The notes under the pieces were generated by a model. That model saw only the letters and a program-made list of their open reading frames with translations, did no database searches and was not told the origin of the DNA. The position numbers and the translations under genes were made by a program. From positions 1-64,000 of the forward strand of contig MDYQ01000062.1 in assembly GCA_003024175.1 (NCBI GenBank): a stretch of 64,000 bases of DNA. Direction: 5' to 3'. This DNA is from Planoprotostelium fungivorum. Taxonomy: Eukaryota; Evosea; Variosea; Cavosteliida; Cavosteliaceae. Shown here in pieces: positions 26,184 to 51,140 of the stretch; within the stretch, counting starts at the first letter, position 1, and each line of letters starts with the position of its first letter.

Positions 26184-28483
26184 ATGATGGCTTCTCGTCA
26201 ACCTCTGGCGCCCGTATCGGCCAACAATCAAAATCGTCTATCGATGGCTCCTCAGCGCACTTCTATGGCTCCACCTTCAGCAAGGAAGTCACTCGGTCCC
26301 TCGAGAAATTCTACTAGTCGGCCGTCTGTCGCTCGCACACCCGTTGCACCGAACAGCGTCAGTCGTCCAAGCATGGGAAGTGGTGTATACAGAAAGTGAG
26401 TTTGTGTTCTCGAATGGATCAAGGAACGATCTGATTATGAACAGTGGACGCCCAAGCAATGTATATGGAAAAGGTAAGACCGCCAAGAGCGATCCCAGAA
26501 ACATCACGGACCCTGCTTTCAAGCAGATGTGCGTCAGGTGAGGCCTTCACATCATCTACCTCGCGGTCTCGTTGTTCATCTCGAATAGGACCTTGTTAGA
26601 ATACGCCTTCGGTCACGGATACTCTGGACAAGTATCCGTGAAGATCCTCAACTCACCCACCACGAAAGACTTCATCGGTATCCTCACCTTCTTGTACAAC
26701 CAGATCGATCCCAACTATACCATCGTCAAATTAGAGGAAGACGCCATCAACTTGTTCAAGAGCCTCAGGTGAATATCCACCCACGCTTCCATTCTCACCG
26801 CAGAGAGGTACCCAGTCAACATCTCCAAGAGTGCCCTACAATCTGTAGGTACCATGCACACCTGGCCCAATCTCCTGGCGGCCCTCCATTGGTTCGTGGA
26901 GCTTTTGGTGTTCTACGAGAGCAGGATCAACATTCAGATCATCGACAACGAGGGACAGATTCGCTTCGATGAATTGTACTCTGATGCCATGGAGAACAAC
27001 GAGCAGAAGGTCAGCTCTCTCATCATGGACGTCACGGTCCGTGCCTACGAACAGTGGCTCATTCAGAACATTGTGAGTCTCTCCTCTTCTCTCTCTTCTC
27101 ACTCTGTCCCAGGACGATCGATACCCCGCCCTTCTAGATTTAGAGGTGAGAGATCGATCTCTCTGTTGATCCTGATGTCGTCAGGCTCAATTCCAAGAAT
27201 ACTGCGCTCAAGACATTCATGCGGTGGCCGCCCAAGAGGCAGAGAAGAACCGTATCTCTAACTCGATCGAAGACCTTCTCAAGGGAGAGGTACTGTCTCT
27301 TCGTTCGTCCCCCACTCACTCTGTGCAGAATGACATTCCAGAGCGTCAGCAGAGGCTTCAGATCTTACAGGAAGACTCGAAAAAGTTTCAGGCTGCCATC
27401 GATAAGGTGGCCGAGGCACAGGCCAAGCGACACGTGGGCATGATCAAACTGCAAGAGAACACCGTCACGGAGGGTGAGAGGAAGAAGAGGATCCAGTTGA
27501 CATTCCACAGAGGCCGCCCTCGAGCAAGTCCTGCAGGAGTTAGCCGAAGTCCAAGGCCTCGTAGAGGGACAGCAGGCCATCGCCGCCGAGCTGGACAAGC
27601 TACTGAGAGAGTGCAATTCTTTGGACGAACAGATTCTCTCCTTCACACAGATGAGAGAGGAGAGAGAGAGGGTGAGCCACAAACGATGAACAAGATCCTC
27701 ACACGAGCAGGGCAACCAGGCCATGGAGGCGAGCATCTCTCGAAAGATGGAAGAGGTGGAGAAGCAGACCCTGCAGTACAACAACGTCGGCAGACAGATG
27801 AAGATCATTCCTTCCACCTGCAAGAAGGCCAAGGGCACCAACTATCAGGTGAGCCACCCCCCACGCTCTCCACTCACCCACATCAGATTGTATTTGATCA
27901 CAGCAAGCCCGACTCCTGGATGGATGCCTTCAAGAACACGACGAGGGGGGCCCTCGTGGCCTTCCGCAACGAGACCGACAGAAGCACCGCCCTCTTAAAG
28001 GACCAGAAGCTGTCGTCAGACGACCAGACCGAGAGGACGGAAGAGTCCATCGTTACCCTCGACGAGGAGATCAGACAGGCCAAGTCAGACGTGGACGTCC
28101 TCAATGAGAAGATCAGGCAGGACAAGGAGGCTCACAAGGGTGAGAAGAGACGAGAGGCGTAGAGAATAACAGAGACAGTGTGGACCGTGGAGAGAGACAA
28201 CAACTTGGGGAAGGTCAGGGCGGAGATCAAGTTCTTAAATGATTCCGTGCGGGAGTCTGTGGAGAAGTCGAACAACTCCCTGACAGAGATGAAGGGGTTC
28301 AGACAGCAGACCCTGCAGACGTACGAGAAGGAGAAGATGGAGGCGACGAACATCTGCCACGGGGCGCTCGAGAGATTGATCTATATGATGGAGCACCTGA
28401 AGGACAACACGTCGGCCTTACACCAACACGCTCTGTCGCAGAAGGAACAATCGGCTGTGCCAAAGACGTGGTCTACACAATAA
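26184..28483 (+). CDS. NDC80: kinetochore protein NDC80/HEC1
   Basis: NDC80 is the microtubule-binding subunit of the outer kinetochore NDC80 complex in mitosis. The ATG at 26184 gives MMASRQPLAPVSANNQNRLS, a Ser/Pro/Arg-rich unstructured tail as in the family, which Aurora B phosphorylates in other species. The CH domain reads DPRNITDPAFKQMCVRTLLE, KDFIGILTFLYNQIDPNYTI, EDAINLFKSLRYPVNISKSA and TMHTWPNLLAALHWFVELL. The coiled coil starts after DDRYPALLDLEAQFQEYCAQ and runs through SIEDLLKGE, KPDSWMDAFKNTTRGALVAF and HGALERLIYMMEHLKDNTSA. It ends SAVPKTWSTQ at 28483. Ten or so short introns are needed. An in-frame TTG at 26178 is not used here as a start. Confidence 0.95.
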
Positions 28484-28537
28484 ATGGGATGATGATGTGT
28501 GATGCTTCATGATCGTTCGGTGAATCGTCTTTCGTTG

Positions 28538-28561
28538 TAGATGACTTCATGAAGTCATCTA
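28538..28561. promoter_or_regulatory. 24-bp perfect palindrome upstream of TM2D3
   Basis: Half-site TAGATGACTTCA is followed at once by its exact reverse complement with no spacer. It lies between the NDC80 stop (28483) and the TM2D3 signal-peptide ATG (28588). It contains TGACTTCATGAAGTCA, which could be a bZIP-like operator; this is inference. Confidence 0.5.
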
Positions 28562-28587
28562 GATCAGATGGAAGATACACCACCGAC

Positions 28588-29312
28588 ATGTTCAACCGCA
28601 GTTGGAATGTCGCTATTCTATTCGTCCTCTTCTTCACTTACGCGGCCGGTCAGGGAACCAACGACATCACCATACAGTGCTCACAATTAGACGCCACATT
28701 TTACAACTGCTCGTTCAACTGTTCATGCCGCTACGGCTCTTTATCACAAGTGGAATGCAGTATCGTAGACGATTTTTTCAATAGCTCACAGTGCGCGGTG
28801 AGGAAGATGAACATTATCAATGTCTAACGAGATCAGGGGAACACAACGTTTACGAAAGATTTTCAATGTCTATACTGCTATCAATTACCAGACACTGAGT
28901 ACACATGTTCAAGAACCGATGATTGCGATGCAAGCAGATCTTCACCATACTTGACAACTTGCCTCGTGAAAGGCGACGTCCTTTGTTTAGGTGAGCACAC
29001 TCTTTACACACAAACCTGAGAGAACACAGGAGAGAGACAGTTCATGAAATACGTACAATGTAGCGTGAGAGGCAGGTACAGATGGAGGACGGCAGTCTTA
29101 CTCAGGTGAGAAGAACGAGAGGTGGATCTTCTAACTCTTCAAGCCTCTTCTTGGGTGGATTTGGTGCCGATCGGTTCTATCTGGGACACTTGGGATGGGG
29201 TTTCTTCAAGTTGTTCACCTTTGGAGGTCTGGGCGTGTGGTCACTGATCGACGTCATCCTCATCTTGATCGGTTATCTCAAACCTGCCGATGGATCACTT
29301 TATCTGTATTGA
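28588..29312 (+). CDS. TM2D3: TM2 domain-containing protein 3 (almondex/TM2D3)
   Basis: TM2D3 is a secretory-pathway membrane protein that affects Notch signalling in animals; its role in protists is unknown. The ATG at 28588 places a signal peptide [16 protein letters not shown] at the start; an in-frame ATG at 28549 would add 13 residues and is less likely. A Cys-rich luminal part follows: [20 protein letters not shown], then [20 protein letters not shown] and [20 protein letters not shown]. The TM2 domain reads [20 protein letters not shown] with the DRF motif, then [20 protein letters not shown], and it ends PADGSLYLY, the typical TM2D3 C-terminus. Confidence 0.93.
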
Positions 29313-33322: not shown

Positions 33323-36300
33323 TTATCTTTTATTATTATTTCTCAGGGCCTGAGAATGTGTGATGGGAGCGTAGACATCGTGTACGATCGCAACTGAATC
33401 GGTTGATTCCGTTACACAAGGATTCGAGTAGATTGGAACTCTGTTCTCTTGAGGCTGCTGCTCCACCTCTTCTACTCGCACGTTATCCGATTCGAAGCCC
33501 TCCTTCATCCTCATCATCTCTTCTTCCACATCGCTCTGAACGGGTGATGAGCCTGGAGCTAATGATCTCACGATCATCTTGAAGTTTGGACGATCATCCG
33601 GTAACTCCGACCAACAGACTGGTGATGATCAGAAGATGTGATGAGATCTCGAAGAGGCTCACTCTGCATGAGCATTTGGAGTTGAGGGTCTGTGTCTGGA
33701 ATTTCAAGTCTCTTCTTCTCGCTGATGATGGCGACCGCTGCTTCCACGGGCGTCATGTCTGGGAATGGTTCGGACACCTCGATGATCTCCCTGATGATGT
33801 TTCAGAGGAAGGTGGAATCTCAACTCTCACCAGATGACCACTCCGAAAGACCACACGTCACTCTTGGTCGAATACTGTCTCTCTTTCAAGGCTGTTTATG
33901 TCAGGTGATGATAGTGAAAGTTGGGACTCTACCTTCGGGCGCCATCCTGTGGGTATGTCAGTGATCGAGATCATGGTGAAATCTCACCATTTAACCGGTC
34001 CAACGTTTGTATTGGTCCTGAAATGACGTCATGATGACATCATCATACGTCAACACTCACTTGGCACCGCGCTCGTCGGCCGATTCGGTGACTCGACTCA
34101 TTCCAAAATCGGTCACTTTAGGTTCCAAATGCTTCGTCAGTAAGATGTTTCGAACCGCCAACTATCTCTCATCAGTACAATTATCTTCGTTTCTCTCTCA
34201 CATCACGATGGATAACGTTCTCTTTGTGGAGATGAAGCATTCCCAGAGCTGCAATGATTTCAATTTACGTTTGGGTCTTATCTCTCACCGATGCCAGTGA
34301 TCCATTCCATCTTCATCTCTAGACCGACTGTATTCTTTCTGAGGAAATCGTACAAACTTCCTCCCTCACAGAACTCTCTGTCGATTCATCAGATGATATA
34401 GAGAGTGAGAGGTGGATCACGTGATCATGGTCAGTGGTTGAGGCGGAATAGTCATGCCGATGAACAAGACCACGTTCTGTTGAGATGTCACGACATGAAC
34501 GATGAGATCATCCCATCGAATCAACTCACGGGATGGCTTCGGAGGTTCTGGAGAATGGCCACTTCTTTCAAGAAGGCTTCTACTTGTTCCCTAGTCACAT
34601 GTTCGGCCCTGATCTGCTTCACGGCCACGTTTAATTCTCTCCACAGACCCTTGAAGACAACTCCGAATGCCCCTGATCCGATTTCCTGTTGATCATCAAC
34701 TGATGTGATCCATCTCCCTCTCACTCACGGCCATATCAGATATCTCTCTGTAATCGACCTGAGATGTGTCAATTCGATGGATTTCGTTAGGTGCCTCACG
34801 ATCGATCTCTTGGCGGCACCGAGGTCGATGTCTTCTAGATCGATGGTCTGATGCATGATCTGAGTGATGTGCCTGTACTCGTTAACTTGTATCACGTCGA
34901 TCTTTCCACCTCTTTCGGAGGGCTAAGGCCACGAGCGATGAGACCAATATCAGAACGAGGAGAGATCCTCCCACAGAAACACCGATGATGACACTCTTTG
35001 GAACTTCCGAACCTTGATTGACATCGTTCGTTGTGACCTGTAGCTGAGGAATATAATTGGAGAAGTTTAGGACTTTCACTCCATGATTGGATAGGGCGGT
35101 CAGTGTAGTGGGATCTGCCAGTACACTGAGTAGACGAGATGAAGAACCCTCATTCGATCTAAAAGAAATTAAGACGACACACACAATCAACAAGCATGAT
35201 TCACCCCTCGAGTGCAGGAGATATGGCACCATCTACGATAACACTTCCTTCTTGCACTTTCAAAATCGTGAATCGTCCAGTATTTACTGCCAGCACCTGA
35301 CGGAATCGATCAGGTTCAGATCGGTCGAAAGGCACTCACAGCCGATAGGGCCATCAGATAAGCAGTCTGGTTCCAAGTAGATAGAGACCCTTCCATTCTC
35401 ATTCTGAACTGTACGGTCACGTTTGAATCGGTAGTGGTGCATGTAGCATTGCATCGAGAGCGGGACGGGGAGGTGATTGGACATTCGAATGAATTCTCCA
35501 TAAAGTTGCACAATTGAATGGAGGGGGGAAGAGTTAAGACGCTGACGTCATTGAACGAGTTGTGAGACATATCAAGGGACTGAGAAGATCAGGCGAATGT
35601 CAAACGAATATCTCTCACGCGAAGGCTGTTCGAGAATTGCGGAATCTTCCCGGTGAAGGCATTGTAGCTGCTCGATGTTAAATCTCGTCTACAACAGTGT
35701 AGATTCATCACCTCATATTGACCGTTTGTATCTGAAATAGAGATCTCATGGTACCGATAGATCCAGTGAGAATATTGTTCGATAGATCGAGACTCTTCAA
35801 AAATTTTGCCGATGACAGGTCGGGCAGGTTTCCTTCGAAGGCATTTCGACTCAAATTGAGCTGCTGAATCGAACCCAACTTATTCAACCAAGTCAAAGGC
35901 CCCCACAGAGCATTGTCCGATAGATCGACGAGGGAAGGGTCGCTCTGTCAGGGTTATTTTGTGCTTTCAAACTAATATTTGTGTCACCAGAATGTCTTCC
36001 AACGAACCGTTGAGACTGTTGTTGTGCAGGTCGATGGACTGTAGCGAGCGGATACTCCACAATTCCTGTGGTACGTCTCCCTGTAGATTACAGTTGGACA
36101 AGTTGAGGGATCTCAGATTGATGAGATTCGATATGTCGGAGGGGATCTCGGTAGTGAGAGGGTTGTTTGATAAGTCCAATGTCTGATTCAGATCAATCGA
36201 CGTAAATACCGACGACGCTCACCGTGAGTTGAGTGAGAGACATCAATTGCGTCAGATTGGAAGTGAGACGATTACCACAGACAGACAATTCCTGATACCA

Positions 36301-39300
36301 TGAGATTCAGAGTAAAAATATTATCCGTGTGATCGTCTCACTTGAAGATACAGTAGAAGATCCATGCTGGGTAACGACCCAGACATCCTGTTTCCACCCA
36401 ATCGAAGTGTTCTGAGGCTGAACAAGGAGGCAACGGATGATGGGAAGGGGCCGTAGATGTCATTATTCGAGGCGTCCAACACCTGCAAATAAGAAGACGT
36501 CAAGAGTTGAGGCGGGAAGAAGCCAGTGAATCGATTGTCGTTGACGTAGACGTTCTGCAGCAGTTTTCCGTTGTTGAATAGGTAGAAGAGATCTCCATTG
36601 AAGAGATTGTAAGAGATGTCGACGTAATTGAGCTGGATGGATGTGTACTGTGGAAACGAACCCGTGAAAGAATTATTCCTCAGGTTCAATCTATCAGCGT
36701 CAGAAAGTTAACAGAGCGTTTCGATCTCACCTGCTGATGTAGTTGAGAGAATTCAGCGAAGGGATGCTGCCAGAAAATTGGTTGTTTGACCTGTCCGTGT
36801 CACGTGACGTACCATCGACGGGTCGACTCACAGATCGAGCAACTGTAGACCAGCCAAATTTCCCAGCCACTTCCAGTTGGACCCAGTGAACTGATTATCG
36901 TTGGCGTAGAGGATAGCCAGTTTCGACGTTGTCAATTGAGGAAAGTCACCGGAGAATTGATTGTGACCGACTTGGAGCAATAAGAGGGTGTCACCGGTTG
37001 TGATGGGCTGTAATGTTCCGTTGAATTTGTTGTTCGTGAAGATCAACTGAGAGCAGGCGGGTAAGTTGTAGATGGAAGGAGGAAGATTTCCGCTCAATTG
37101 ATTGTACGACACATCCAAGATATAGAGGCCGGTCAAGCTACCGAATACATCGGGAAGCTATCAATTGGCGTCAGAGATGATGACAGACGGACGATCTACC
37201 TGTCCACTGAGTTGATTGCTGCCGAACTGAAAGTATTGAAGATTGTGAAGATTCTTAAGGCAAGCGGGAATCGAACCGTTGAATTGATTGTTCGACTGAA
37301 GATATCAGCAAGATAAAAGAGCCGGATCGTTACCATGGTCAAGTCTGTGAGTTGTGTCATGTTTCCGATCCAATTGGGAATGGAACCTGACGACCGACAT
37401 CAGTGGACGCCACACGAAGAACGGATCACCTGTGAACGTGTTGAATGCCATACTCAGGATCTGAAGATTCGGACAGCCAGCGACGTTCGGAAACGCTCCT
37501 CTGAAGGTATTCTCTCCCAGGTAAATGGTCGTCAGATAAGGCAAACGTAGCACCGGAAACTGTACGACATTAAATGTGAACATCAAGTGGAATCATCTCA
37601 CCAGTCCTCTCAGTCTGTTGTTACTTCCGTACAAGATTTTGAGATCGATCATATTGTTCATACAAGAAGGAAGTCTACCAGTCATTTGATTCGTGTGGAA
37701 TGTGAATTCGGTCATTTGTGTGGCATTACAAATCGTTCGTGGTAGAGTTCTGTACGCCCTGATGAGACGGAACATATTATATCTGGACGGACTCACCCGT
37801 CCAACATGTTATTGTTGATGTAGAGTTGTAAGAGATTCTGACAGTTGGTTAAATTTGGAAGACTTCCCGTGAGGAAATTGAAGGCCATATTTACGACCTG
37901 TCTGTTGATGAGGGACATTCTGTGTCATTGGCTTTGTTGATATCCTCACCGTCAATTGTGTCAAGTTGTATAGGATGTCAGGCACTTTTCCGCTCAGGTC
38001 ATTGTGGTTCAAGCTCAATTCTCTTACGGAGGTGAGGCCACACAACGAGCGTGGGATCGATCCTATAGTATGTTATCGACATCCATCTTATCACCCTCAC
38101 CCGTCAGTGCATTGTTATTCAGGTAAACGTTCTCCGCTAAAGAGAGGTTGCCCAGGCCGGCAGGTATCTCTCCAATAAAACTGAAAACAAGGGTGAGACT
38201 TGGACCCAACAAGAGAAGACGTACTCGTTGAAAGACAGATCCAGGTAATAGAGTTGAATGAGCTGAGAGATGGATGATGGAATCTCTCCGGTCAGACCTG
38301 GATTACCGATGATGGCCAGAAATTGTAAATTCGTCAACGTCCCCAGTGATTCTGGAAGCGAACCTGTCACCATGTTAGACACAACGATCGCTCGAGGCGT
38401 GGTTCTCACCGGTCATGTTGTTATTGACGAAATAGAGGAATAAGACACGATATTCATCGTCACAGACGATATTCGAGAACGAACAGAATTGATTGCTATC
38501 ATTGATGGGAAGCGTCCAATCTAAACCTTGCCAGCCCACACCTATCGATGTCACTAACCGTGTAGATAGCCAATTCCATCACCTCCCGCTTGAAGATACA
38601 GATCGTTAAGTGCGGCACAATCTGGACAGCCTTCGATCGGAATCACGGGTTGTAGAATGACATCACACGGAGTGATTCCCGTCTGAGAAGGGGTGACGTA
38701 ACCGTAACTGTACATCGCTTCCATGGACCATTGCAATCGATCGTTGGCAGGCCATACATCGTAAGACCATCCACCCTTAGCACTCAAGAACACCTGACGT
38801 ATGTTCATACTCATCGATCACGCAATCTCATGCACCTGAAATAGCGCCGAGAGCAGATCTCCGCTTCGATCCAGCGACACGCCACAGCCGTTGAAACCAT
38901 CAACCAATAGAGGTCGATTGGGATTTGCCACGTTGTACCAATAGATATTGTTAGCGATCTGGGGTACTAATCCGTTAATCTTATCGTCGTCCGTGTTGGA
39001 GGAAAATTTCTGAGTATCTCAGTCTCACGTGAGATGATGCATGACTCACACCACAGAGGTAGATCTGGTAGTTGTACCAGACAGTGTGATAAGGTGGTTG
39101 AGACATAAAATTAACCCATGCAGCATCTGTCGGGTTCGCATTGTCAGGCAGATCCACCACGACGAAGACTTGATCGTTGTATCGTCTCACAACATTGTAA
39201 GCAGCTTGGTAATAGCTGCGCCAATCAGAATCGTCTGAATGATCAAACATGCAGAGACTCACAACATGAGATTGTTGATGTCTGCACCATTCGCCGCTGG

Positions 39301-41638
39301 ATTATCGATGACCGATATCCCGATGAAGTTGTGGTGCTTTCCGTATCGAGTCATAAACTGATCCATTGCGCTCAGCATGCAGTCGATGTTGGACATGTAC
39401 GGACTGAAGTAGTAAGCTCCGGAATTGTTCGGTCCAGAAGCTCCTTGCCCCGCGTTCTGACCACCTGGTACAGAGTGCATGTCTAGAATGATACCCAAAT
39501 CCCACTTGGCAGCCCACTGGAAAGCTTGGTCTAAGTAGTGGAGCGACCCCGTGACGAAAGCGGAGGGGCTGACGCCAGGGCAACCGTTCTGTCCTCCTCC
39601 CTGCCATCGCTTCAGAATCACACGTACCGTACGTATACTCACGGCGATATCGAATATCTGCCACCATCCCACTGGTACCCGTACCGAATTGAGACCCAGC
39701 ATGGACATCTTTGCAAAATCTTCTTCGTCCACATAAGTGGCCCAGTGTTGTCTCATGATCGTGTTCGCTCGCGATCCCAGGCACTGCTGCAAGAGCCAAG
39801 TTCCCGGATAAGTCTGAGGAGAGCAGTCGTTCTGCAGCCACATGGAAGAGGAGAAGTCTGAATCGACCAAGAACCAACCGTAGAGAGATGCCGCACGTAC
39901 CGGTACGGAATAATTCTTGACTGATTGTAGACGGTCGCCGATGCAAGATTTCTGAGGTAGATATTCGATGGTGGGAGATGTCGTGGGGACCGGTGCTGAC
40001 ACAGGCGTTCTACAACCAGTCAATCTTGCAGCTGCTACCGCAGTGAGACTCACACAGAGGACCAAGGAGCGGTGCGTATGCTCGTTACGACGTCGCTATC
40101 ATCTCCTACGATGCACGAGGGTAGTCCGGTGGCATTGGATTGAAACCAACCCTGACGGTAAGATTCTCTCATGGACCATACGGTTCCCGTTGCCCTCCAA
40201 CTCCAGTACGTCCATCCTCCCTTCACTTTTGCAAAGACCTAATTCATTTAACCCTTCTTCTACATCGTTGTAGATCACCTCCAATTGTGCCTTGGCCAGT
40301 AGCCACTCCTTCCCTCCCGACACACCACACAGAGACCATTCACCGATCATGAGAGGCTTCGCATTGACCTGCATTCGAATGAGAAGAGAAGCAGATTCGC
40401 TCCACCTTGGCGTATTGCTCCAACAATTGATTCTTCGCCGTATACATGTTCTCGATACGATCATCATCGGTGTCTCCCGCTCCTCCCTGTGATGATGTCA
40501 TCACACGTCATCCATCGGTAACTCACGAAGCACTGATAGGCGTGAAGGTCCAGGTATACGTTGGTGTATTTGGTGGTGTCACTCATGAGAATGATCCAAT
40601 CAGATTCCGTTCCTGTCTGAAAGGGTGTAGTCAAGGGGCTGATGACCACGAGACCCTGGCTGCTGTACTTTCTAACGGCCGCATAGGCCAGGTCGTAGTA
40701 CCTGATCATGTCATTTACGTCTACAACGAGACGTCCTCACGTGTAGAGGAAGTACACGTTGAACATGTGGTCCGAGCATCCCGGTTCATTTAAGAGGGCG
40801 AAACCGAGAAAAGAAGTCCGATTGTGATACCTCTCGGTGTAAGCTCTGATCGATTCTACTGTCTGATACGCATTGTTTGGATCGGTATCGAAGCCGCACG
40901 AGTTGAGAGAAATTGGGGAACTGTGAGGCTGCGGCTTATGTAAGCAAGGTGATGACAGAGAGGGAGATCACTTGTCCGTTCTGTGAATTGACACCGGCGT
41001 GCATGTCTAAGAGGACCGCGATTCCGTACTTCTCCGCCCAATTGAAGACAAGGTCGATGTATTTGAGAGCACCCATGGCGAAATTGGTGGGAGAGACTTG
41101 CAGGCCCGCTTGAGACGCTCCACCCTGGGTCTCGATCAGCTCATGTGACGGACGGGTGTATGATACTCACGACCGTATCGTAGATCTGCCACCTGGAAGA
41201 TTCAATCAATGCGAGGTGAGATGAGATGACATCACCATCCGAGAGGAACTCTGACCGTGTTGATGCCTTGAGCTGCCATCTCCTTGAAGTCTGTCTCGTT
41301 CATCCAAGTGGACCAATGATGCTCCAGAACTTGATTCATCAACTGCATCATGTCATTTTCTCTTTCCGTCCATCATCTCATCTCACCGCCGGTGACTGAG
41401 CGTATAGACATTGTTCCAATAGGTACTGCCCTGGGTGAGTGTCCGGGTTACAGTTGTTGTCTATCCATAAGTTGGGGTACATGTAAGACTCCACGATGAA
41501 CCAAGAGCCCAGGTTAACTCCTCTCATCGGCACAGACAAGCTCTTCACTGCATCGAGCCTCTGTCTGAGGCATGTGTCGTCCAAGAGGGCCCAGGCTACG
41601 GTACTAAAATACAAGAAGAGCTGCAGCGACTGCTTCAT
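33323..41638 (-). CDS. GH5-GH5-LRR-TM-kinase receptor
   Basis: This appears to be one receptor gene. Signal peptide MKQSLQLFLYFSTVAWALL starts at 41638. GH5 domain 1 has RGVNLGSWFIVES, LLDMHAGVNSQNGQ, acid/base FALLNEPG near 40790 and nucleophile LMIGEWSLCG near 40340. A 44-nt intron joins APWSSV to a linker TPVSAPVPTTSPT and GH5 domain 2 (39930-38680), where NEP is DNP (VIDNPAANG) and GEWS is DGFN. A single exon at 38814-38554 carries the GH5 end and the LRR cap (CPDCAALNDLYLQAGGDGIG). Plant-style LRRs (GLTGEIPSSISQLIQLYYLD) run to about 35560. After QVLAVNTGRFTILKVQEGSV comes the TM helix SVIIGVSVGGSLLVLILVSS. The kinase shows EIGSGAFGVVFKG, VAVKQI, IHRDLAVRN, DFGMSR, PVKWMAPEA, SDVWSFGVVIWE and CWSELPDDRPNFKMIV. 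It ends SQALRNNNKR. Confidence 0.85.
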
Positions 41639-42193
41639 CCTTTCGAGCTCTGTTCTGTTTGATTAAGCTCCTCTTCATTCCTCCTTCCATCCTCCCTATC
41701 CAACTCACTCCTACCCACGTCAGTCGTCCTGCGTTACGATAACACAAGCAACCCATTGAGACGATGATACGCGCCATATGAAGAACTACCTTCCAGCGGG
41801 GGATATGAGAAGATTCCAAGGGCATTACGTTGAATCTCCACAGAACGAAGGAGAAGAGCCCATCGGTGTTTGCCCCATTCCAAGTACATCGGGGGGATTC
41901 GAATCACCGATAGGACCCGAATCTTGACTATCCATGGGCTATATTCGATTCCCTATCCACATAGATCCCTATAGACAGCTCTATGTCTGAAGATGAGAAG
42001 ATGAGACACAGAAGATGATGAGATGTAGATGAGAAGAGGAGACACAGAAGATGATGAGATGTAGATGAGAAGAGGATGAGATGGAAAATGAGACATAAAG
42101 AATGAGATGAGATGATGAGATGCAAAAGATGATGAGATGCAAAAGATGATGAGATGCAGAAGATGATGAGATGCAGATGTAGAACATGTCGGT
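41639..42193. other. tandem intergenic region with repeat
   Basis: It lies between the 3' end of the mitochondrial-type orphan and the receptor start, both on the minus strand. The left part should hold the receptor promoter; the right half (41990-42180) is a minisatellite. Confidence 0.5.
41990..42180. repeat. intergenic minisatellite, GATGATGAGATGCAGAA unit
   Basis: Imperfect 17-nt units GAAGATGATGAGATGCA, and longer units with GAGAAGAGGAGACACA, fill the region just after the stop of the gene at 42194-45249. Confidence 0.85.
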
Positions 42194-47578: not shown

Positions 47579-49907
47579 ATGATGAGCGGAATCATCACCA
47601 GTCACGATGTTACAAAGATGATCTTAGAAATCGTGATGAACGAAGGTATCAAACAACAAGATGGCCAATACTCGAGCAAGCCTTGGCACTATAAATCCCA
47701 CGTTGCAAGAAAGGAACAGTTTGCCAAGCTTCGCCTGACATGCAAGTTGTGGAAAGACATCGGTGAGAACAGCGTCTGACGCTCTCTTAATCTGCTCAGT
47801 GGACAGCTTCACCCACTGGCTGACCTATGACGATCTGTTCCTGGCAGTAAAGGGATGCAACATCGAGTCCCTACGCTTCCTCTTGACTCACACCGAGCTG
47901 GACCCTGGTGAAGGACGTAATCAACTCATCATAGAGGCATCTCAAGATGGTCTGACCGAAATCGTGCGGCTGCTCTTGTCCGATCCTCGTGTGGATCCAT
48001 CAGCAGATCAAAATGATGCCCTCGTAGAGGGAATCTCCTATGGTCACATTGAGATCGTCAGGCTACTCTTGTCTGATCCTCGTGTGGATCCGCCAAAAGA
48101 TATCATGACGGTGGCAGCCTCCAGTGGATGTACTGATGTGGCACGACTACTCTTGTCCGATCCTCGTGTGGATCCATCAGCAGATGGAAATGAAGCCATC
48201 GTAGAGGCAATCTCCTGTGGTCACATTGAGATCGTCCGGCTGCTCTTGTCCGATCTTCGTGTGGATCTGCCAGAAGATATCATGACGGTGGCGGCCTCCA
48301 GTGGATGTACTGATGTGGTACGACTACTCTTGTCCGATCCTCGTGTGGATCCATCAGCAATGGACAATGATGCCCTTAAGACGGCGATCTACTGTGGCTA
48401 CATCGAAATCGTACAGCTACTCTCAAGTGACCACCGTATTGATCCATCATTGAACGGTGACGAGATGATCAGAACTTCAGCCCTTGGAGGTCATACGGAG
48501 ATCGTGCGGCTACTCTTGTCCGACCCTAGGGTAGATCCTTCAGCGAAGGACAACGAAGCCGTGAGAGCGGCAGCTTCACGTGGTCACACTGAGGTTGTCC
48601 GGCTACTCTTGTCCGATCCTCGTGTGGATCCATCAGCGAAGGACAATGAGGCCGTGAGAGAGGCAGTTTCACGTAGTCACAATGAGGTTGTCCGGCTACT
48701 CCTGTCCGATCCTCGTGTGGATCCATCAGCAGAAAACAACGAGGTCATCGTAAAGGCTGCATCTTTTGGATCTATTGAGGCGGTCAGACTGCTCTTGGCT
48801 CACCCAAAGGTCGATCCATCTGCGAGAAACAACGAGGCTATCGTCGCTGCTTCTCTTAAAGGGCGAACAAAAGTGGTTAGGCTGCTATTAGACCACCCAA
48901 GAGTCGATCCATCGGTACGAGACAACGAAATCATCATACGAGTATCATCGCACGGCCACACTGAACTTGTACAACTTCTGTTATGCCATCCACTCGTGGA
49001 TCCATTCACACGAAACAGTGAAGCCAAGAGAAATGCAACTAAAAAAGGACACAACGGGGTGGTACAGCTGCTGTCAGCTTTCGAACGAAGAGTGGCATGG
49101 GGAGAAGCTGTGAGCGAGGAGGTAGAACAGATGGATGATGATCATCAAGCGATCGAACTCCTCTTGCTGGCACATCCGCAGGCAGATCCATCAGCAGTAG
49201 ATGACTACACCATCCGATATGCTTCGTCCAACGGCTGCATCAAGCTGGTGCAGGCACTGTTGGCTGACCCTCGTGTGGATCCGTCAGCAAGAGACAACGA
49301 GGCGATCAGAGAGGCTGTATCGAAAGGCCATCACAAAGTGGTAGAGCTTCTTTTAGCCCATCCTCGTGTGGATCCATCAGCAAGAGACAACGAGGCTATC
49401 CGAACTGCTGCAATGAGGGGTGGACATCAATCAGTGAAATTACTCTTGATGCATCCTCGTGTAAATCCGGCAGTTAGAGACAATCAGCCCATCAGGACTG
49501 CATCCGGATACAACTGCACCGAGACAATACGACTGCTACTGGCCGATGATCGAGTGGACCCATCGCCTGGAGACAACTACGCCATACAAAACTCAGCGGC
49601 GATGGGATGGCATGAGATTGTGGACCTTCTCTTGGCTGACCCTCGCGTGGATCCGTCGGCGAAATCCCAGAATGCCATCAGAAGGTCATCAGCCAAGGGC
49701 CATACCAAGATAGTGCAGTCACTTTTGAACGACCCTCGTGTAGATCCGTCTGTAGACAACAACTACCCCATCCGTGTGGCAGCAGACAGAGGCCACACTG
49801 AGGTCGTAAAACTTCTGTCGTCTCATCCTCTCGTGGATGCATCAGCACGAAATGCTTCCACCGTGAGAAGACATGTAAGGGCGTCACAGCCGCCCTCGAA
49901 TCGATAA
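47579..49907 (+). CDS. ankyrin-repeat array protein with F-box-like N-terminus
   Basis: Exon 1 from the ATG at 47579 reads MMSGIITSHDVTKMILEIVM and later FAKLRLTCKLWKDI, which resembles a degenerate F-box helix pair. A 37-nt intron (47773-47800 region) leads into one long exon ending PPSNR at 49907. This exon has about 20 ankyrin-type repeats of 32-36 residues with the theme GHTEVVRLLLSDPRVDPSAK and DNEAVR. Such F-box/ankyrin proteins often act as adaptors or are repeat-family proteins of protosteloid amoebae; the binding partner is unknown. Adjacent repeat pairs near 47985-48350 are almost identical in DNA, showing recent unequal duplication. The repeats carry DPRVDPSA in the hairpin, unlike the usual TPLH start of animal ankyrins. 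Confidence 0.85.
47985..48350 (+). repeat. recent two-unit duplication in the ankyrin array
   Basis: A block of about 180 nt containing two ankyrin units (IMTVAASSGCTDV and SYGHIEIVRLLLSDPR types) is present twice with few differences. Confidence 0.8.
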
Positions 49908-50326
49908 AAATTACATAAAAACCGCGTTTGATGGACATATATGCACTTTTATTCACCACTTCTACACGATATGTACAGGACTGGATCTCCTTCATACATA
50001 TTGAGCCTGTCTCAGGACCTCATACCCAAATACTCACTCAACAGGGATTCATCCACTCACTCAAATACCTATTCCTGCCGAGGTTTTTGCGGCCCTTGGC
50101 TCATTTGATGTCCAACTGTTCGAATCATATAGCGGTATTGAAAGAACAAAAAAAATGGTTCATCTATTCACAATGGAGTTGATGCTCATACGAGGGTCTC
50201 TTGGAATCTCCCTCTTTTGCCTCAAGTCATGACCCTCCATATTCCTCTTCATCAACAGCAGTTCCTCTTCCCTGCCGATTCGCTGCTCCCTGCACTATTG
50301 TCAATTCATCAATGATAAACGTTCCC
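49908..50326. other. convergent intergenic region
   Basis: This lies between the ankyrin gene stop and the homeobox gene stop. No supported gene was found. Confidence 0.4.
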
Positions 50327-50647
50327 TCACTTCGACCTCCTGTTTCGATACCACGTCTGGTCATCATCAAAACTCGCACTCATGTCTGTTTCACTTACCC
50401 TCACTCGTTTTTCTGACATGACCACCATATCAGCGACCATCTTCACCTCTCGTCGATTTGGATTCGGATTATGTTTGAACATTTCCGTCAGTGCTGCGGT
50501 TTGTTGTGGGGTCGTTCTGTACTCTTGCAGTCTACCGTCGTCTATCGAACTTCTCCTCTTCCTAGTATGTCTCCACGCCTCATTACACGAGAAATCGCCG
50601 GAGAGTACCATAAGGTCAGAGTCTTCGTTTGACATTGGACGGTGCAT
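50327..50647 (-). CDS. small homeobox transcription factor
   Basis: This is a DNA-binding homeodomain protein of about 92 residues. The start at 50647 gives MHRPMSNEDSDLMVLSGDFS. The homeodomain follows: RKRRSSIDDGRLQEYRTTPQ, then QTAALTEMFKHNPNPNRREV and KMVADMVVMSEKRVR. A 43-nt intron (GTAAG to CAG, about 50357-50399) falls inside helix 3, followed by TWYRNRRSK and a TGA. Helix 3 WYRNRR corresponds to WFQNRR of typical homeodomains; Arg sits at the usual Gln position (residue 50 region), which may alter specificity. The protein ends right after the homeodomain, so it has almost no other domain. An upstream extension of the start is possible. Confidence 0.85.
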   Translation of the reverse strand: MHRPMSNEDSDLMVLSGDFSCNEAWRHTRKRRSSIDDGRLQEYRTTPQQTAALTEMFKHNPNPNRREVKMVADMVVMSEKRVRVSETDMSASFDDDQTWYRNRRSK

Positions 50648-51140
50648 GATGAGAAGTCCGGCCAGCTAGAGAGTCGTCTGTGAGTTCCCCGTCCCCGAGC
50701 CTAGGACAACTGTGTTTCTCCCTGCTATCTGACGGACAGACCCGCAAGAACATGTGCTGTTGGGTGCTACAGTCACGCTCGTCTTCAGATTTAATCTATT
50801 ATTCTTCAGACCGGCTTACGTAATCGGGTTACACCACGGGTGCCGAGGCATGGTCTGGTGGTTAGAGAGGAGGAAATTAGATGACGATTCACGTTGTTAG
50901 CGAGGGTAACGGTGACGACTTGAAAGATGTCCCTGTCGTCTCCACTCGTTAAGAATGTGATTGACCTCTGAGATGTGATGATCTGATTGACCACCATGAA
51001 TGTATGAAGAGTGGTTGTGATATGCCTCAATTATCGCGAGAAGACTCGGGCAATCGGGTGAAACATCATGTCGAATGTGAAGCCACATCACACCTACACA
51101 GCCGCATGAACATCTCATCCTCTTACGATTTACATTTCAT
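50648..51140. other. intergenic region between homeobox gene and SMC3
   Basis: This is the upstream region of the homeobox gene and downstream of SMC3, both on the minus strand. Short open frames on both strands are unsupported. Confidence 0.4.

What the first reader, a model, noticed from the sequence alone, without database searches (positions are those of the whole stretch)
33323..41638. One gene joins two GH5 glycosidase domains, plant-like LRRs, a TM helix and a tyrosine-kinase-like kinase
A single exon (38814-38554, minus) contains both the end of the second GH5 domain (GGWSYDVW, WSMEAMYSYGYV) and the LRR N-cap that leads into GLTGEIPSS repeats, so the GH5-LRR fusion is visible without any splicing assumption. 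The second GH5 has no ATG of its own (the frame opens at a TTG), and a 44-nt GTGAG...TAG intron joins the first GH5 to it in phase through a Pro/Thr linker. The LRR region runs through a TM helix into a complete kinase. I know of no described receptor with this order. A surface enzyme-receptor that cuts beta-1,3-glucan and reports it would fit a fungus- or yeast-eating amoeba (inference).
Basis: partly seen in the sequence, partly recalled or inferred. Interest (0 to 1): 0.95.

Follow-up and report, generated by a model that had tools for sequence, protein, structure and literature searches.

The report
Enzyme-headed receptor kinase in a protist
One long gene in an intron-rich eukaryote appears to encode a cell-surface receptor whose outer part carries two sugar-cutting-enzyme domains (one that looks active, one that has lost its cutting residues) on a long repeat stalk, with a tyrosine-kinase-like signalling domain inside the cell; if RNA confirms it, it would be an unusual way to sense glucan.

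Summary
A minus-strand gene (ATG 41638, stop 33323; modelled with 44 introns of 37-53 nt) reads as one 2147-aa protein: signal-peptide-like start, GH5, Pro/Thr linker, second GH5, about 33 plant-type LRRs, one TM helix, kinase with tyrosine-kinase motifs. One uninterrupted exon (38793-38583) holds the end of GH5-2 and the start of the apparent LRR cap.

GH5-2 is a pseudoenzyme: both catalytic glutamates are replaced (N640, G746), while GH5-1 keeps both (E226, E336). And GH5-2 arose by duplication inside the gene: its four introns all match GH5-1 introns in position and phase.

Best reading: a glycan (probably beta-glucan) receptor; GH5-1 engages or trims glucan, GH5-2 with the LRRs binds, and the kinase reports. 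Precedents exist for the parts: tobacco CHRK1 (dead chitinase-like ectodomain plus kinase) and Klotho (tandem dead GH1 domains serving an RTK).

Weak points: no RNA; no eukaryotic database could be searched; the organism is unidentified; my two automatic models both spliced out the TM helix, through splice sites that rank lowest among those compared, and I restored it by hand. New variant of a known kind.

The parts
33323..41638 (-). Whole coding region, 45 exons, 44 introns, 2147 aa
   Evidence: Splice model by script, then curated by domain continuity; one stop, at the end. 41 of the 44 introns were found by at least one automatic run; 3 (35204-35159, 34909-34873, 33932-33892) are curated only
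41585..41638 (-). Signal-peptide-like N-terminus MKQSLQLFLYFSTVAWAL
   Evidence: Sequence and hydropathy (best 10-residue mean 1.55); no signal-peptide predictor run. The finder preferred an upstream ATG at 41825
40122..41527 (-). GH5-1 (about aa 38-395)
   Evidence: Pfam PF00150 E 3e-22, aa 90-372; PDB 1cz1 E 8.2e-27
40785..40787 (-). GH5-1 acid/base Glu226 (NEP motif), present
   Evidence: Aligned to the NEP of 1cz1; numbering; the catalytic role of the motif is recalled
40339..40341 (-). GH5-1 nucleophile Glu336 (GEW motif), present
   Evidence: Aligned to the GEW of 1cz1; numbering; the catalytic role of the motif is recalled
40010..40053 (-). 44-nt intron joining GH5-1 to GH5-2 through a Pro/Thr linker
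   Evidence: GTGAGT...TTGTAG; 24th percentile of 141 other introns. If kept, the GH5-1 frame stops at once, at 40050
38692..39951 (-). GH5-2 (about aa 438-800), copy without catalytic glutamates
   Evidence: Pfam PF00150 E 2.6e-10; PDB 8z2w E 2.4e-23; 129 of 371 aligned residues identical to GH5-1
39301..39303 (-). Asn640 in place of the acid/base Glu (IDNP for NEP)
   Evidence: lies inside an exon
38896..38898 (-). Gly746 in place of the nucleophile Glu (VDGF for IGEW)
   Evidence: gap-free stretch anchored by PL and CGVS on either side; lies inside an exon
38583..38793 (-). Single exon holding the end of GH5-2 and the start of the apparent LRR cap
35448..38446 (-). About 33 plant-type leucine-rich repeats (aa 869 to about 1638)
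   Evidence: Pfam; script chains 34 units of 21-25 aa, the last one not LRR-like
34975..35447 (-). Membrane-proximal region (aa 1639-1766), no Pfam match
   Evidence: PDB search found only weak matches, mostly to TM segments, best E 0.28
34918..34974 (-). Transmembrane helix VGGSLLVLILVSSLVALAL (aa 1767-1785)
   Evidence: Highest 19-residue hydropathy in the protein, 2.54. Both automatic models spliced it out; kept by curation
33560..34731 (-). Kinase domain (about aa 1822-2069) with HRDLAVRN and PVKWMAPE
   Evidence: PF07714 E 1.5e-76 against PF00069 E 2e-54; motifs
33323..33559 (-). Cytoplasmic tail with two tyrosines (VPIY Y2113, HDVY Y2132)
   Evidence: role as phospho-sites is inference

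Best explanation
One gene encodes a type I membrane receptor kinase of a eukaryotic microbe. SHOWN by sequence, given the splice model: a GH5 domain with an intact catalytic pair; a second GH5, a duplicate within the gene, that has lost both catalytic glutamates; a long plant-type LRR array; one TM helix; a kinase with its catalytic motifs and tyrosine-kinase signatures. INFERRED: the protein is made as one chain and sits at the cell surface; GH5-1 engages, and probably trims, beta-1,3-glucan-like chains from a microbial or own cell wall; GH5-2, chemistry gone, holds the glucan or product; the LRR array supplies reach or a second binding surface; clustering or a shape change activates the tyrosine-kinase-like domain and phosphorylates the tail.
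For: Domains. Best PDB matches of both GH5 domains are exo-beta-1,3-glucanases or glucan 1,3-beta-glucosidases. Catalytic residues kept in GH5-1, lost in GH5-2. Duplication: all 4 GH5-2 introns coincide in column and phase with 4 of the 8 GH5-1 introns, about 1e-9 under uniform placement; these coinciding introns came from the automatic run, before any GH5-1/GH5-2 alignment. Bridging exon, and no convincing ATG-plus-signal-peptide at the first two joins. One-gene call by a finder with parameters from the other window genes. TM. Kinase: glycine loop, VAVK, HRD, DFG and APE present; the residue matching PKA Thr201 is Pro, not Ser/Thr, a criterion read in PMC1420674 section 9.
Against: No RNA evidence. 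Both automatic splice models removed the TM helix, and the final model rests on three curated introns that neither run found. The finder errs in this window: it appears to have fused an Ndc80 gene with a TM2-domain gene and split a PP4R3 and a Glx-tRNA-synthetase gene. Split penalties inside the gene are 2.7-25.5 nats, 5.5 at the GH5/GH5 linker, 2.7 near the end of the LRRs. An ATG at 35232 opens a strongly hydrophobic stretch and could start a short TM-kinase isoform. Scans for GH5 relatives confirmed none, but they used narrow patterns in viral and prokaryote collections. Substrate and activity are inferred. 25 sequons lie outside and 0 inside, but composition alone predicts 24.7 and 1.6, so they say nothing on topology.
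Confidence: 0.57

Rival explanations
1. Two or three adjacent genes: a secreted tandem GH5 protein (or GH5-1 alone, ending at the stop at 40050 if intron 40053-40010 is kept) followed by a separate LRR receptor kinase.
For: If intron 40053-40010, or the intron after 38583, is kept, in-frame stops follow at 40050 and 38554; splitting costs only 5.5-6.4 nats near these places; the finder appears to have fused two genes elsewhere in the window.
Against: Exon 38793-38583 carries the end of GH5-2 and the apparent LRR cap without a stop; in the GH5-2 frame the first ATG is inside the domain; the ATGs listed at the GH5/GH5 and GH5/LRR joins open no convincing signal peptide (unspliced reading, hydropathy only), whereas the TM2 gene fused by the finder shows [23 protein letters not shown] of its own. 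Stop-containing introns are the rule here: 33 of 44.
Confidence: 0.13
2. Glycan-binding receptor in which neither GH5 acts as an enzyme in vivo: GH5-1 is used only for binding, as in CHRK1 and Klotho.
For: The GH-like domains of CHRK1 and Klotho are described as without activity (passages); GH5-2 lacks its catalytic pair here.
Against: GH5-1 keeps both glutamates and the Arg, His, HxY and Trp positions aligned to 1cz1 (that these line the active site is recalled). Retention beside a decayed copy suggests selection for chemistry (inference).
Confidence: 0.2
3. The receptor monitors the cell's own wall (cyst, spore or stalk glucan) rather than prey. Compatible with the main mechanism; differs in the target.
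For: Yeast Exg enzymes act on the cell's own wall glucan (recalled; no call); nothing in the sequence points to prey.
Against: Nothing tested; the organism is unidentified and its wall unknown.
Confidence: 0.25
4. A short TM-kinase isoform starting at ATG 35232 is the main kinase product, and the upstream GH5-LRR part is a separate product.
For: Hydrophobic stretch after ATG 35232 (best 10-residue mean 3.8); cheapest internal split, 2.7 nats, at 35530-35410.
Against: The stretch is read through the pyrimidine-rich end of intron 35204-35159, which would give hydrophobic codons by chance (inference); the upstream LRR protein would then lack an anchor.
Confidence: 0.07

Closest known systems
CHRK1, chitinase-related receptor-like kinase of tobacco (passages in the review PMC10573068; the original paper is not held)
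   Same: Glycosidase-like ectodomain and kinase in one membrane protein; the ectodomain lacks a catalytic glutamate
   Different: Class V chitinase-like, not GH5; no LRR array mentioned in the passages; plant; here one GH copy keeps its catalytic residues
Alpha/beta-Klotho, co-receptors of FGF receptors (passages in PMC10628560)
   Same: Tandem glycosidase-like domains (joined by a proline-rich chain in alpha-Klotho) with catalytic Glu replaced (Asn241 in KL1 of beta-Klotho; Asn640 here), serving a receptor tyrosine kinase
   Different: GH1, not GH5; the kinase is a separate protein; animals. Resemblance in design, not shown to be descent
Plant and oomycete LRR receptor-like kinases (oomycete: passages in PMC3019232)
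   Same: Extracellular LRRs, TM, cytoplasmic kinase
   Different: No word starting with glycosyl, glucanase or hydrolase occurs in the main text of PMC3019232; the kinase here is closest to EGFR, CTR1, ABL, EPH and ITK in the PDB, with no RLK/Pelle kinase in the best 60 of 2696 matches
Amoebozoan receptor tyrosine kinases of Acanthamoeba and Physarum (passages; section 28 of PMC4758236)
   Same: Protist tyrosine kinases with predicted TM domains
   Different: No GH5 or LRR ectodomain in the passages read; their domain figures were not held
Exo-beta-1,3-glucanases (PDB 1cz1, 8z2w; that these are fungal is recalled)
   Same: Best solved matches of both GH5 domains; catalytic pair shared with GH5-1
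   Different: Enzymes without receptor parts (recalled); GH5-2 lacks the catalytic pair

Membership tests
Glycoside hydrolase family 5 (GH5) | Match to the GH5 profile above Pfam's gathering score | tested here: met
   79.9 and 40.7 bits against a cut-off of 23.5
Glycoside hydrolase family 5 (GH5) | Two catalytic glutamates, GH5-1 | tested here: met
   E226, E336
Glycoside hydrolase family 5 (GH5) | Two catalytic glutamates, GH5-2 | tested here: not met
   N640, G746: a GH5-related pseudoenzyme by sequence, not an active GH5 enzyme
GH5 exo-beta-1,3-glucanases | Best relatives are exo-beta-1,3-glucanases | tested here: met
   Top PDB matches; PDB only, no CAZy subfamily scan
GH5 exo-beta-1,3-glucanases | Hydrolysis of beta-1,3-glucan | not testable with these tools
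   Needs an assay
LRR receptor kinases | LRR ectodomain, one TM, cytoplasmic kinase in that order | tested here: met
   the TM depends on a curated splice choice
Plant LRR-RLK (RLK/Pelle kinases) | RLK/Pelle-type kinase domain | tested here: inconclusive
   None among the best 60 of 2696 PDB matches; no kinase tree built
Receptor tyrosine kinases | Motifs of the HRDLAxRN and PxKWMAPE type, and no Ser/Thr at the PKA Thr201 position | tested here: met
   HRDLAVRN, PVKWMAPE, Pro at the Thr201 position. The Thr201 criterion is from PMC1420674 section 9, which also notes non-TK kinases without Ser/Thr there; the two motifs are recalled
Receptor tyrosine kinases | Phosphorylates tyrosine | not testable with these tools
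   Needs an assay
CHRK1-type glycosidase-domain receptor kinases | Class V chitinase-like ectodomain | tested here: not met
   No chitinase family among the ectodomain matches up to E 1; the significant ones are GH5 and LRR families
Klotho | Tandem GH1 domains, neither active, no kinase in the chain | tested here: not met
   GH5, one copy with its catalytic pair, kinase in the same chain

The most novel reading that the evidence does not exclude
A self-contained cut-and-read receptor: an active GH5 glucanase head trims wall glucan at the cell surface, a dead GH5 twin derived from it binds the product or chain end, and the same chain passes the signal through an LRR stalk to a tyrosine kinase, so that an enzyme's own activity generates the ligand its receptor reads.
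Probability: 0.28. Interest if true: 0.85.

Novelty: new variant of a known kind. Interest (0 to 1): 0.62.

Why it matters
A receptor with an apparently active glucanase, its dead twin, plant-type LRRs and a tyrosine-kinase-like output in one chain would be a concrete, testable candidate for glycan sensing outside plants and animals, for instance in how a single-celled predator or an encysting cell reads a wall. It would also be an independent case of a Klotho-like design (duplicated glycosidase-like domains, catalytic residues lost, tied to tyrosine-kinase signalling), with the duplication still legible in shared introns.

Tried and rejected
Whole-genome search for other copies: no genome is held. 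Relatives by translated scan: GH5-1 in viral contigs, no pattern match; GH5-2 in viral contigs, 0 of 5 pattern matches confirmed; GH5 pair alignment in prokaryote genomes, 0 of 49 confirmed; kinase in prokaryote genomes, 2 of 131 confirmed as kinase relatives at 31% and 23% identity, whose architecture I did not examine. These scans use exact short peptide patterns and are insensitive. Rfam at gathering thresholds: nothing. tRNA: nothing.

Considered and dropped: N-glycosylation sequons as proof of topology (composition explains them); the finder's one-gene verdict as decisive; donor 38558 for the GH5-2/LRR intron (5th percentile); the 34974-34923 intron of both automatic models, which removes the TM helix (0th percentile). 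Automatic models differed from the final one: one search stopped at 33901 with 42 introns; one search gave 51 introns and 1983 aa and cut out further domain parts. The agreement of intron length (median 42) and donors between this gene and the others is partly built in, because the finder's length penalty and first splice matrices were taken from this gene.

The Pfam and PDB scans were run on pieces of a model that differs from the final one only around aa 837-844.

Neighbours: 23 of the 29 other predicted proteins of the window were scanned with Pfam at E 0.001 (5; 10, one cut to its first 309 aa; 8). g05, g07, g10, g11, g16 and g24 were not scanned.

Papers: ten searches answered, open-licence PMC only, listings of 5-40 papers. 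No title or abstract start listed there describes a GH5-LRR-kinase. Passages or single sections were read of nine papers; none was read whole.

Change after re-checking: confidence of the best explanation went from 0.60 to 0.57, because one search showed that both automatic models splice out the TM helix.
Full report
What was checked. The region was read on the minus strand and splice models were built by dynamic programming: once with the start fixed at ATG 41638 and once over the whole window without fixing it. I then curated junctions by domain continuity. The final model has 45 exons and 44 introns of 37-53 nt (median 42), from ATG 41638 to a stop ending at 33323: 2147 aa, no internal stop. 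Of the 44 introns, 36 are in the first automatic run and 37 in the second; 3 are in neither. Keeping an intron brings a stop in 33 of 44 cases and shifts the frame in 38 of 44; one does neither.

The weakest curated point is the TM helix. Both automatic runs spliced it out through 34974-34923. Those sites score at the 0th percentile of 141 introns of other window genes, against the 50th for the intron I used, 34909-34873, and the helix lies in an open frame exactly between the ectodomain and the kinase. I keep it, but cDNA must decide.

Is it one gene? A finder with codon and splice parameters from the other window genes (9128 codons, 192 introns) returns a single gene ending at 33323, though it prefers an upstream ATG at 41825. 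It scores 236 nats, against 0-2.7 in 20 dinucleotide shuffles and 3.1 on the opposite strand. The hold-out is incomplete, because those gene models came from a finder seeded with this gene. Forcing a boundary at sampled positions inside the gene costs 2.7 to 25.5 nats. Cheap places include the end of the LRRs (2.7), the tail (4.2), the first exon (4.7), the GH5/GH5 linker (5.5), a place inside GH5-1 (5.8) and the LRR cap (6.4). An extra gene carries a fixed cost of 7 nats in this scheme, so the scan does not decide. The same finder appears to have fused an Ndc80 gene with a TM2-domain gene and split PP4R3 and a Glx-tRNA synthetase.

The stronger arguments are direct. Exon 38793-38583 carries the end of GH5-2 and the start of the apparent LRR cap without a stop. 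The first ATG in the GH5-2 frame is inside the domain (39843). The ATGs at the two upstream joins open no convincing signal peptide, though hydropathy is a blunt test: the gene's own start scores 1.55, and an ATG at 38373 leading into an LRR scores 1.73. ATG 35232, before the TM helix, opens a strongly hydrophobic stretch (3.8) and could start a short isoform. I put a single gene at about 0.85.

The two GH5 domains. Both match PF00150 (3e-22 and 2.6e-10), and their best PDB matches are exo-beta-1,3-glucanases or glucan 1,3-beta-glucosidases (17 distinct sequences matched by each at E up to 0.001, the weaker ones including other GH5 enzymes). GH5-1 keeps the NEP glutamate (E226) and the GEW glutamate (E336). 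GH5-2 reads IDNP and VDGF at the same places: N640 and G746. Both substitutions lie inside exons, away from any splice choice. The copies share 129 of 371 aligned residues (35%). All four GH5-2 introns fall in the same alignment column and phase as four of the eight GH5-1 introns, about 1e-9 under uniform placement; these coinciding introns were found by the automatic run before the two domains were aligned with each other. The second domain is therefore most simply an internal duplicate that has lost its chemistry.

The rest of the receptor. About 33 LRRs of 21-25 aa follow; 21 cores of the NxLxGx(I/L/F)P type were counted. Then come a membrane-proximal region with no Pfam match, the TM helix (hydropathy 2.54), and a kinase with glycine loop, VAVK, HRD, DFG and APE. 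It carries HRDLAVRN and PVKWMAPE, and Pro at the position where PMC1420674 (section 9) finds Ser/Thr in conventional Ser/Thr kinases. The best PDB matches are an EGFR entry with two kinase copies, CTR1 (a plant TKL kinase, recalled), ABL, EPH and ITK (best 60 of 2696). I built no tree, so 'tyrosine-kinase-like' is the safe term. The tail has two tyrosines (Y2113, Y2132). All 25 sequons lie outside, but composition alone predicts 24.7 outside and 1.6 inside, so this is not evidence.

Surroundings. Of 29 other predicted genes, 23 were scanned and 19 gave a match. These include PSD13/Rpn9, PP4R3, UTP15, Ndc80, Noc2, a Glx-tRNA synthetase, an SMC fragment, a homeodomain and an ankyrin protein, so this looks like an ordinary nuclear locus. 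None of the listed matches is a GH5, LRR or kinase family. The organism was not identified.

How it probably works. Shown, given the model: anatomy, catalytic residues, duplication. Inferred: the ectodomain meets beta-glucan; GH5-1 trims or grips it; GH5-2 holds it; the LRR array provides reach or a second surface; clustering activates the kinase. Whether the target is prey or the cell's own wall is open.

Comparison with the known. CHRK1 shows that a dead glycosidase-like ectodomain on a receptor kinase exists. Klotho shows tandem glycosidase-like domains without activity serving a receptor tyrosine kinase, with an Asn in place of a catalytic Glu in beta-Klotho KL1. LRR receptors and protist receptor tyrosine kinases are known, and the nine classic receptor kinases of the Dictyostelium TKL group have other ectodomains. 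None of the passages read describes GH5 with LRRs and a kinase. That rests on ten searches of open-licence papers with capped listings, and on no eukaryotic protein database.

Noticed in passing
window 34882-35232 (-): ATG 35232 opens MVPYLLHSRGESCLLIVCVVLISF..., in frame with the TM-coding exon through an unspliced intron: a possible short isoform start.
   Followed up: partly
window 34975-35447 (-): Membrane-proximal region of about 128 aa between LRRs and TM has no Pfam match; it may be an unnamed domain.
   Followed up: partly
window 26373-29312 (+): Ndc80/HEC gene apparently followed closely by a TM2-domain membrane protein with its own ATG and signal-like start; the finder fused them.
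   Followed up: partly
window 47579-49866 (+): Predicted 508-aa protein with ankyrin repeats.
   Followed up: no
window 50101-50997 (-): Small predicted gene with a homeodomain match, E 2.8e-8.
   Followed up: no
window 42000-42190 (-): Low-complexity CATCTCATCATCTT-type repeats upstream of the receptor gene.
   Followed up: no
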